From the NCBI GenBank assembly GCA_018398765.1, contig JAHBMJ010001455.1:1-30634 (forward strand): a DNA stretch of 30,634 bases, given 5' to 3'. Numbering within the stretch: position 1 is the stretch's first letter; each line of letters begins with the position of its first letter. A program made the translations under genes and the position numbers. Below, piece after piece: positions 3,714 to 6,535 of this stretch. The notes beneath the pieces were generated by a model. It was not told where the DNA came from, made no database searches, and saw only the letters and a program-made list of their open reading frames with translations. The DNA comes from Chromera velia. Taxonomy: Eukaryota; Sar; Chromeraceae.

Positions 3714-3766
<53 letters not shown>

Positions 3767-3777
3767 AGAGCGGATGC
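1775..3777. other. Convergent spacer, largely AT-rich, no gene seen
   Basis: This 2-kb gap lies between two gene 3' ends. About 1800-2080 and 2280-2880 are AT-rich with a (CTAA)n run near 2336. Between them, 2085-2230 is GC-rich and holds a perfect 9-bp inverted repeat (ATGCAGGCA at 2184-2192, TGCCTGCAT at 2217-2225). From about 2880 the base composition becomes balanced. A GT then GA microsatellite occupies about 3712-3764, just beyond the stop codon of the minus-strand gene. ORFs here on either strand lack splice or family support. Confidence 0.6.
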
Positions 3778-6535
3778 TCAGTTCTGCTGCTGCTGCTGCC
3801 TCGCTCTTCCAAGAAGACGACGTCCACGACCTCCAAACACCGTGTGGATGTTGCCAAAGTTGTGCCCATTCCAGGTGTTGTGGTTCTGGGTGAATCCCCC
3901 ACTGAAGTAGTTCTGCTGGCGCTGATCATACCAGGGCCCGTTCACGTAGCCGTAGTTCTGCTTCTCCTCATCTGTGCTGTCGGGATTGCCTGCGTTGACC
4001 TGCAGGCTCAGAGGGAGGGGAGGCAGAAAAGAAGAGAGGGGGAGAGAGACGTTCACACGAAGAGATGAAGATGTAAATTTTCTGTATGAGAAGGAATTAT
4101 TCGACAGGCAGCTAGGGCTGATCGATGATTCTCTTCCTCCAAATTCAGTTTCAGTGCGGGCTTTTTTTCGCACAATGTCATGGGTGCGGAAGAGACAGTC
4201 ATTGGACTGAGCATGAGGGGCAGAGACAACCGGAGAAAACGAGAACCCAAAACAAAAGAAGTCGAAGAGAACCAACAAGATGTGAAAACGGATCGAGCCG
4301 AATGTGGGAAAACTGACAAAACAGAGCCCTGAGGAAGTACAGGGAAGTAAAGAAAATGGAAGAGGAAGCAGGAGGGGGTGCACAAATACTGTCTATGCGC
4401 GTCAACTCACTCACCCCTCTGGCAGCGATCTGCTCTTCCTCCTCGACCTCTCCTTGAAGACGGCGTCCCCGGTATCCCCCTCCAAACACGGAGCCGATGT
4501 GACCGAAGTTGTTGCCGTTCCACTGGTTGAAGTTCTGGGTGTACCCCCCGTTGAAGTAATTCTGCCGACGCTGATCAAACCAGGGCCCGTTCACGTACCC
4601 GTAGTTCTGCTTCTCGAACTCCAAGGCTTCTTCCTCAGGAGTGACAACACCTGCCTGGCTCCTCTCATTCTCATTCTCAGTTTGAGTCTGAGTCTGAGGG
4701 TCCGATTGCAGTCTCCTCCCACCAAACACCCCACCAGGACCAAACATTGTGGAGGCAGACCCATAAAAGTTTCCATTGAAGGTCGTAGAACTGCCCGGAC
4801 TTACCCCTCCCCCAAACACCGTCTCTGCCCCCCTCTGCACAAATGCCCCCTGATGAACCCCTGTGTTCACTCCAGAGCCACCGGGGACGGTGCCGGGAAC
4901 GACAGGGAACTGGCCGATCGGGTGTCTGTGAGTGACCCCGGTGCTGTCTGTGACATGCTGCCAATACCTGCCATTTGCATCTCTCACAATTCCGTTGGAA
5001 AAGTCACCACTGACAGGGACTGAACCATTGCCAGGGGAAGCAGGCGCTTCAGCTTCAGGCACAGCAGGGGTAGGGGAAGCAGCGCTTCAGCTTCAGGCAC
5101 AGCAGGGGTAGGGGAAGCAGGCGCTTCAGCTTCAGGCACAGCAGGGGTAGGGGAAGCAGGCGCTTCAGCTTCAGGCGCAGCAGGTTCGGGTTCAGGAACT
5201 GATTCTGCTGGGGGGTCTGCGACTCCTGCTGTGGGGGGGGGGACCTCGACGGTTTCCGACACGACTCCGGTCCTCTGTCCCGTCACAGGATCGACAGATT
5301 CGGCGGCACCGGGAGGAACGGTGTTGTCTCCAATCATTCCGAAATTCTGTCCCCTCCAAGCGTCCGTCGATGAGCTGACCCCCCCATTGAAGAAACGGGC
5401 AGTGGCTCCAGGGACGTATGGGCCTGCAACATAGCCGTAGTTCTGCAACCGACGTCCACGCCCTCCAAACACCGTGTGGATGTTGCCAAAGTTGTGCCCA
5501 TTCCAGGTGTTGTGGTTCTGGGTAAAGCCCCCATTGAAGTAGTTCTGCTGGCGCTGGTCATACCAGGGCCCGTTCACGTAGCCGTAGTTCTGCTTCTCCT
5601 CATCTGTGCTGTCGGGATTGCCTGCGTTGACCTGCAGGTTCAGAGGGAGAGGGGGGCAAAAAAGAAGAGAGGGGGGATTGTGAGTGAAGGAGGAAGATTT
5701 GTATGCAGAAGCAGACGAATGCAGACGGAAGAAGGGTGGCTCAAAGAGAACAAAGACGTGCAGTCATGAGGGAGGCAAAAAAGGCCCAGTGAGCGGACAA
5801 GGATGTTTCTTCAAGTGCTTCATGAATGTATGAAGGGAAGGACTCGTCTACTAAGAAAGTGAAAGGAAGATTGTGGTTGGAGAAAGTGAGCAGGAAGGAG
5901 CTGTCGAATGGGGAGACAGCCGGATACAGACGAGAAGGAAGGCAACACAGCAGGACATGTGGACAGGGAAGAACGTCTCCCTCCCTCGCACTCACTCACT
6001 CACCCCTCGGGCAGCGATCTGCTCTTCCTCCTCGACCTCTCCAAGTTGAAGGCGACGTCCCCGGTATCCCCCTCCAAACACGGTGCCGATGTGACCGAAG
6101 TTGTTGCCGTTCCACTGGTTGAAGTTCTGGGTATACCCCCCGTTGAAGTAATTCTGCCGACGCTGATCAAACCAGGGCCCGTTCACGTACCCGTAGTTCT
6201 GCTTCTCGAACTCCAAGGCTTCTTCCTCCGGAGTCACAACCCCGACCTCTGGGGGGGTGATTGGGGCTGTGGCAGGCTGCACAGATATATTGAAAGAAGG
6301 GACATTGAAGGAAATTTGATGCGAGCCGTGATTCACAAGAGAACGGAGGAGAGGAGTGACGGAGGTTCAGTCTGATGCCACTGACAGACTATTTCTATAG
6401 ACCAACCACTTCATTCGTCGCCTCTGTTGGTCGACTGTCGGGCGGAGGAATGCTTGGTACTGATGGCCCCTGCGCATCTTGGGCATTGCAGGCCAAGACT
6501 AACGACAAAGCAACTGAACAGACGGACTTCATCAT
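3778..6535 (-). CDS. Secreted modular repeat protein (four exons, one frameshift)
   Basis: Exons on the minus strand: 6535-6410, 6276-6004, 5631-4415 and 3999-3778, with stop TGA at 3780-3778. Splice sites are GTGAGT/CTGCAG at introns 2 and 3 and a weaker GTGGTT donor at intron 1; all introns are phase 0. Exon 1 gives a classic signal peptide, MMKSVCSVALSLVLACNA, followed by a Pro-rich linker. The mature part carries about 48-residue modules: NYGYVNGPW, DQR, QNYFNGG, TQN, W-G, NFG, VFGG and a terminal RGRRL. There are four well-kept modules, one partial (about 5300-5450) and one degenerate Gly-rich one (about 4700-4850), separated by a Pro/Glu/Ala repeat of PEAEAPASPTPAV. Exon 3 is 1217 nt, one base short of frame, because a 39-bp repeat copy near 5081 lacks a G; the frame resumes correctly after it. 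Repaired length would be about 612 residues. No known family is recognised; an extracellular coat, matrix or peptide-precursor role is inferred. Confidence 0.8.
5030..5175 (-). repeat. 39-bp coding tandem repeat with a one-base deletion
   Basis: About four copies of a 39-bp unit encode the 13-residue repeat PEAEAPASPTPAV in exon 3 of the secreted repeat protein. The other copies read GAAGCAGGCGCTTC on the plus strand, whereas the copy at about 5077-5088 reads GAAGCAGCGCTTC. This single-base loss shifts the downstream frame. An assembly error in a short tandem repeat is as likely as a real mutation. Confidence 0.85.

What the first reader, a model, noticed from the sequence alone, without database searches (positions are those of the whole stretch)
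3778..6535. Secreted modular protein whose modules end in furin-like RGRR sites: a possible peptide or coat-protein precursor
Seen in sequence: a signal-peptide exon, then about 48-residue Asn/Gly/Tyr-rich modules, four of which end VFGG...RGRRL and a fifth FGGRRL. R-X-R-R is the consensus for furin/kexin-type proprotein convertases, and it falls at the module boundary each time. Inference: the precursor may be cut into a set of similar secreted modules, or assembled as an extracellular layer. I recognise no known family with this module, so this is the best candidate for an undescribed system in the window.
Basis: partly seen in the sequence, partly recalled or inferred. Interest (0 to 1): 0.8.

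Follow-up and report, generated by a model that had tools for sequence, protein, structure and literature searches.

The report
Repeated cut-sites in algal secreted proteins
A free-living alga related to malaria parasites carries a family of secreted repeat proteins whose repeats end in a sequence resembling the site cut by the parasites' protein-export protease, and the alga also carries a relative of that protease; cutting itself has not been shown.

Summary
Minus strand 6535 to 3778 holds a Chromera velia gene with a signal-peptide exon and Asn/Gly/Tyr-rich modules; four end RGRRL and a fifth site reads FGGRRL. The family is undescribed, and only Chromera proteins came back from the searches. 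One branch joins the modules to a Kazal domain.

The furin reading does not hold as written. At 48 RR[L/M] sites in 11 proteins (one a gene-model artefact), Arg at furin P4 occurs in 14. What persists is R-R-L (42) or R-R-M (6), then mostly Gln and an acid. It persists in modules only 32-39% identical, and in an otherwise dissimilar secreted repeat protein on contig C966. RRL is the Toxoplasma TEXEL core cut by ASP5; RxLx[E/Q/D] is the PEXEL cut by plasmepsin V. The genome encodes a plasmepsin V-like protease (E 3e-55; next family 4e-16). The one proprotein-convertase P-domain found lies beside a trypsin fold.

Best reading: secreted precursors cut after RRL by a plasmepsin V/ASP5-type protease in a free-living relative of parasites. 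Shown: genes, motif, candidate protease. Inferred: cleavage, enzyme, extracellular role. Against: Met at five real sites; a genome-wide motif count proved uninformative.

The parts
6407..6535 (-). exon 1: signal peptide MMKSVCSVALSLVLACNA|Q...; donor taken as GTG|GTTGGT by likeness to GTG|GTAAGC in C2512 (6410 is the alternative)
   Evidence: donor position inferred
6004..6276 (-). exon 2 with module 1 (EKQNYG... from 6207) and RRL at 6049-6057
4415..5631 (-). exon 3: module 2 (from 5598; RRL 5446-5454), degenerate module QNYGYVAG (from 5445), Pro/Ala/Glu repeat tract with frame slip near 5080, GVNTGVHQ region (from 4873) ending FGGRRL (4709-4717), module 3 (from 4615; RRL 4457-4465)
3778..3999 (-). 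exon 4: module 4 (from 3966; RRL 3814-3822), short tail and stop

Best explanation
The window gene encodes a secreted precursor made of tandem Asn/Gly/Tyr-rich modules, one member of a Chromera family. In the secretory pathway the precursor is cut after the Leu (or Met) of the R-R-L/M-Q-acid site at module ends by Chromera's plasmepsin V/ASP5-type aspartyl protease (contig C500). This frees a set of similar modules, mostly with N-terminal Gln, that act outside the cell, perhaps in the wall or matrix. Shown: gene structure, signal exon, family, conservation of RR[L/M], presence of the protease gene. Inferred: cleavage, the enzyme, order of events, extracellular role.
For: RR[L/M] at 48 sites in 11 proteins, 42 with Leu; the next residue is Gln in 36 of 48 and the one after it Glu or Asp in 34 of 48; observed 2-7 sites per protein against shuffle means of 0.02-0.20. 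Forty-seven sites use 17 codon spellings, so the amino acids are kept. RR is invariant at module ends across five proteins of which two are only 31% identical to the first. Distant modules on C4033 (32-39% identical) end IQGRRLQEE. The Kazal branch has a second site in another context, RRLEET, RRLAET, RRMEET or RRRLGES. A secreted repeat protein on C966 ends each fetched repeat in GRRLQE, and its only BLASTP match of note to P0006 is 13 residues around that motif. ASP5 needs R, R and L at P3-P1 and cuts at internal or C-terminal places (PMC4764566, passages). The C500 protease matches plasmepsin V at 3.6e-42 from one exon, next 1.3e-9, and at 3.4e-55 with exons joined, next 3.7e-16.
Against: No cleavage data. 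Met stands at P1 at 5 real sites (four in P0003, one in the C3868 gene), while point changes at P1 abolished ASP5 cleavage of the peptides tested. Sites in one family may be alike by descent. C966 and the FGGRRL site of C2512 share 17 of 18 bases (listing) and both families have EKQ(N)YG starts, so common descent of that segment is not excluded. Two-site proteins are not far beyond shuffles taken singly (P0005: 2 seen, shuffle maximum 3). The genome-wide GRRLQE excess (132 against 73 reversed and 46 permuted) is inflated by interspersed repeats: of 19 places fetched only 3 (C966, two on C1418) were clearly of this kind, C2831 was unresolved and 15 were not. The structure model is useless (mean pLDDT 31.1).
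Confidence: 0.5

Rival explanations
1. Furin/kexin-like or other basic-site processing: a subtilase or trypsin-like enzyme cuts after RR.
For: RR is present at all 48 sites by definition and RGRR at the four window module ends. Chromera has many S8 subtilases (36 matches).
Against: Arg at P4 in only 14 of 48 sites; only 2 KR pairs against 75 RR pairs; 48 of 75 RR are followed by L or M, which RR cutters would not require (general knowledge). The one P-domain found lies beside a trypsin fold and no S8 match was listed on that contig. The S8_pro-domain search found none, but no control genome rang either, so that is weak.
Confidence: 0.2
2. No cleavage: RRL-Q-acid is a structural or binding linker of an intact repeat protein of the wall, matrix or surface.
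For: The modules are N/G/Y-rich, repeated and secreted; RR[L/M] could be kept for contacts or by descent in a duplicating family.
Against: The motif recurs beside dissimilar sequence: after the Kazal/Pro-rich part, near the signal peptide in P0006, and in C966.
Confidence: 0.25
3. The motif is a sorting or retention signal read by a receptor, not a protease site.
For: PEXEL-type motifs were first discussed as targeting signals (recalled); repeated copies would raise avidity.
Against: In Plasmodium and Toxoplasma the matching motif is a cut site (PMC4764566 passages; PMC10900883 abstract and Discussion).
Confidence: 0.05

Closest known systems
Toxoplasma TEXEL (RRLxx) substrates of ASP5, e.g. 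MYR1, GRA16, GRA44
   Same: Secreted proteins with RRL followed often by an acid; sites may be internal, C-terminal or several per protein (PMC4764566 passages; PMC10900883 Discussion)
   Different: Free-living alga, no host or vacuole; sites in regular tandem at module ends; Met at five real sites; cleavage unproven
Plasmodium PEXEL (RxLxE/Q/D) substrates of plasmepsin V
   Same: R at P3, L at P1 and an acid at P2' in most sites; the protease relative is in the genome
   Different: PEXEL processing is near the N terminus; here sites are repeated along the chain
Kazal-type protease inhibitors (PF00050)
   Same: Paralogs P0004, P0005 and the C1166 and C3868 genes carry a Kazal_1 domain over the curated cut-off
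   Different: The window gene has none
Furin/kexin-processed precursors
   Same: Repeated units with dibasic boundaries
   Different: R-X-R-R not kept at 34 of 48 sites

Membership tests
TEXEL/PEXEL-type substrates of plasmepsin V/ASP5 | entry into the secretory pathway (signal peptide) | tested here: met
   Signal-like N-termini in the window gene and 9 other family or C966/C1418 N-termini by a simple hydrophobicity and (-3,-1) rule; no trained predictor was available
TEXEL/PEXEL-type substrates of plasmepsin V/ASP5 | RRLxx or RxLx[E/Q/D] motif | tested here: met
   All five window sites are RRL; in the family 42 of 48 RRL and 6 of 48 RRM, one of the six an artefact; acid at P2' in 34 of 48
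TEXEL/PEXEL-type substrates of plasmepsin V/ASP5 | matching protease in the same organism | tested here: met
   C500 locus, plasmepsin V 3.4e-55 against 3.7e-16 for BACE2
TEXEL/PEXEL-type substrates of plasmepsin V/ASP5 | cleavage after Leu by that protease | not testable with these tools
   needs N-terminomics or an enzyme assay
Plasmepsin V/ASP5 (C500 protease) | DTGS and DSG(T/S) catalytic pair | tested here: met
   VDTGST and, with the next exon joined, VDSGTT, both aligned to plasmepsin V
Plasmepsin V/ASP5 (C500 protease) | nepenthesin-type Cys-rich insert | tested here: met
   CKNCKKCGHH...CEPGCTCRDDKCSYYQ aligned with plasmepsin V cysteines; TAXi_N also matches; that this is the insert is from general knowledge
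Plasmepsin V/ASP5 (C500 protease) | C-terminal membrane anchor | tested here: inconclusive
   A hydrophobic stretch lies in a downstream open frame of L069, not linked to the gene by any transcript
Furin/kexin substrates | R-X-[K/R]-R at each boundary | tested here: not met
   P4 Arg in 14 of 48 family sites; four of five in the window
Furin/kexin substrates | proprotein convertase (S8 + P-domain) in the organism | tested here: inconclusive
   One P-domain, beside a trypsin fold; 36 S8 matches, none listed on that contig; the method searches exon by exon
Kazal inhibitor family | Kazal domain | tested here: not met
   Window protein: no Pfam family over its cut-off

The most novel reading that the evidence does not exclude
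Chromera uses the orthologue of the malaria export protease as a polyprotein maturase: secreted tandem precursors are cut at RRL|Q into many extracellular modules. The protease that parasites use to license host-cell effectors would then have begun as a general maturase of surface proteins in a free-living photosynthetic ancestor.
Probability: 0.4. Interest if true: 0.8.

Novelty: new variant of a known kind. Interest (0 to 1): 0.6.

Why it matters
The role of plasmepsin V/ASP5 before parasitism is open. [quoted passage not shown] Candidate substrates with many sites per chain in a free-living relative, together with the candidate enzyme, would make that testable in an alga that is not a pathogen. 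Eight literature searches showed no paper on this family or on Chromera substrates of such a protease, within listings, abstracts and the passages read.

Tried and rejected
Furin as cutter: rejected as the leading idea because P4 Arg is in 14 of 48 sites.

Genome-wide GRRLQE count as evidence: 132 matches against 73 for the reversed pattern and 46 for the permuted GLRRQE; of the first 100 listed, 68 truly read GRRLQE, against 26 of 46 reading GLRRQE. Not used as support, because part of the excess is interspersed repeats (C775, C1402 and C1554 carry one and the same element). Of 19 places fetched (5, 11, 3), C966 and two on C1418 fit, C2831 is unresolved, 15 did not fit. C1418 proved to be a relative of the C4033 genes, so it is not independent.

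Structure prediction of P0002 with four relatives: mean pLDDT 31.1, no use. A protein search with the C966 product found nothing at E 0.001 or better.

Full report
Identity. The best database hit of the reconstructed protein is Chromera velia CCMP2878 A0A0G4GR44 (P0001, 91% identity over 95%); all five hits at E 0.001 or better are Chromera, and so are both hits of the C4033-type protein. These searches score only the candidates sharing most words, so distant relatives elsewhere are not excluded.

Gene. Minus strand: exon 1 6535-6407 (or 6410), exon 2 6276-6004, exon 3 5631-4415, exon 4 3999-3778. The database models P0001 and P0002 start in other frames and lack the signal exon. That exon is nevertheless present in C2512 and C170, with 9 synonymous and 7 changing codons of 43 against C2512, which is only mild constraint; module 1 has 7 synonymous and 1 changing codon of 54. 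The model of the paralog P0003 begins with a signal-like peptide. Exon 3 slips one base in a tandem-repeat tract near 5080; the C2512 paralog reads through without a slip. The slip may be an assembly error or a mutation.

Family. Own-genome searches with two modules gave 36 and 37 matches at E 1 or better. They fall on contigs C1453 (the window), C2512, C170, C3899, C1166, C1142, C2948, C2301, C3868 and, at 32-39% identity, C4033; two short weak matches are on C3943 and C313. Proteins from C1166 and C3868 and the database proteins P0004 and P0005 carry a Kazal_1 domain over the curated cut-off between signal peptide and modules. The window protein matches no Pfam family over its cut-off.

The site. 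In 11 proteins (P0001-P0007, and genes read from C1166, C1142, C3868 and C966) there are 48 RR[L/M] sites, 42 with L and 6 with M; one M site (P0001 residue 23) comes from a wrong first exon. Furin P4 is Arg in 14. The next residue is Gln in 36 and the second next Glu or Asp in 34. Of 75 RR pairs 48 are followed by L or M; 14 are followed by Q, as in the module-internal FDQRRQ; KR occurs twice. Shuffles of each protein (2,000) give means of 0.02-0.20 against 2-7 seen; for proteins with two sites the shuffle maximum reaches 2 or 3, so those alone prove little. At 47 sites 17 codon spellings are used. In the C4033 pair, a site near the signal peptide reads RRLFG in P0006 and RNLFG in P0007: R-x-L is kept while the RR pair is lost. 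That would break a dibasic site and fits PEXEL better than strict TEXEL.

A dissimilar carrier. C966 encodes a signal-like peptide and repeats of about 57-60 residues; eight matches lie on that contig and the seven complete sites in the fetched stretch all read GRRLQE. Against P0006 BLASTP aligns only short pieces, the best being 13 residues around the motif. The shared start EKQ(N)YG and near-identical DNA at the motif leave common descent open.

The protease. Of 20 matches to the pepsin family in the genome, C500 is closest to plasmepsin V among solved structures: one exon 3.6e-42, next 1.3e-9; exons joined by hand 3.4e-55, next 3.7e-16. I built no tree, so orthology is inferred. PMC8540915 (passages and section 10) places two Chromera enzymes in clade B; the parts read do not mention a Chromera clade D (plasmepsin V) member. 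For furin-type enzymes, one P-domain was found, beside a trypsin fold; S8_pro-domain gave nothing but no control rang; S8 gave 36 matches.

Mechanism. ASP5 requires R, R and L at P3, P2 and P1, accepts variation at P1' and P2', and cuts MYR1 near its C-terminal third (PMC4764566, passages). Plasmepsin V also processes non-exported secreted proteins (PMC10900883, abstract and Discussion). I infer that the Chromera protease cuts after L. One hint is that the degenerate module starts QNYGYVAG right after RRL at 5445, so a cut after L would leave QNYG, as in EKQNYG of the other modules. Another is that a candidate signal-peptide cut lies just before Gln in at least 8 of 10 N-termini, so both cuts would leave N-terminal Gln, which often cyclises (general knowledge). 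The simple rule used offers other positions too.

Verdict. Woo et al. 2015 (PMC4501334, passages) uses PEXEL only in general terms in the passages shown.

Noticed in passing
window 5050-5190: One-base frame slip in a tandem-repeat tract (PAVPEAEAPASPT); the database model P0001 skips part of it, apparently with an intron.
   Followed up: partly
L068 (C4033:42600-51244): Two divergently transcribed genes of the distant branch, P0006 and P0007, with RRLFG and RNLFG respectively after the signal peptide.
   Followed up: partly
L070 (C879:21000-27500): A proprotein-convertase P-domain beside a trypsin-fold sequence, an unusual pairing if it is one gene.
   Followed up: partly
L091, L092, L093 (C775, C1402, C1554): An interspersed element with a hydrophobic Leu-rich frame that also reads GRRLQE; it inflates motif counts.
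   Followed up: no
L087 (C2831:25000-27600): Gly-rich reading frame with FGGGRRLQEE and ESRRLQG, interrupted by stops; gene or remnant not settled.
   Followed up: no
window 3717-3767: TG and AG simple repeats directly downstream of the stop codon.
   Followed up: no
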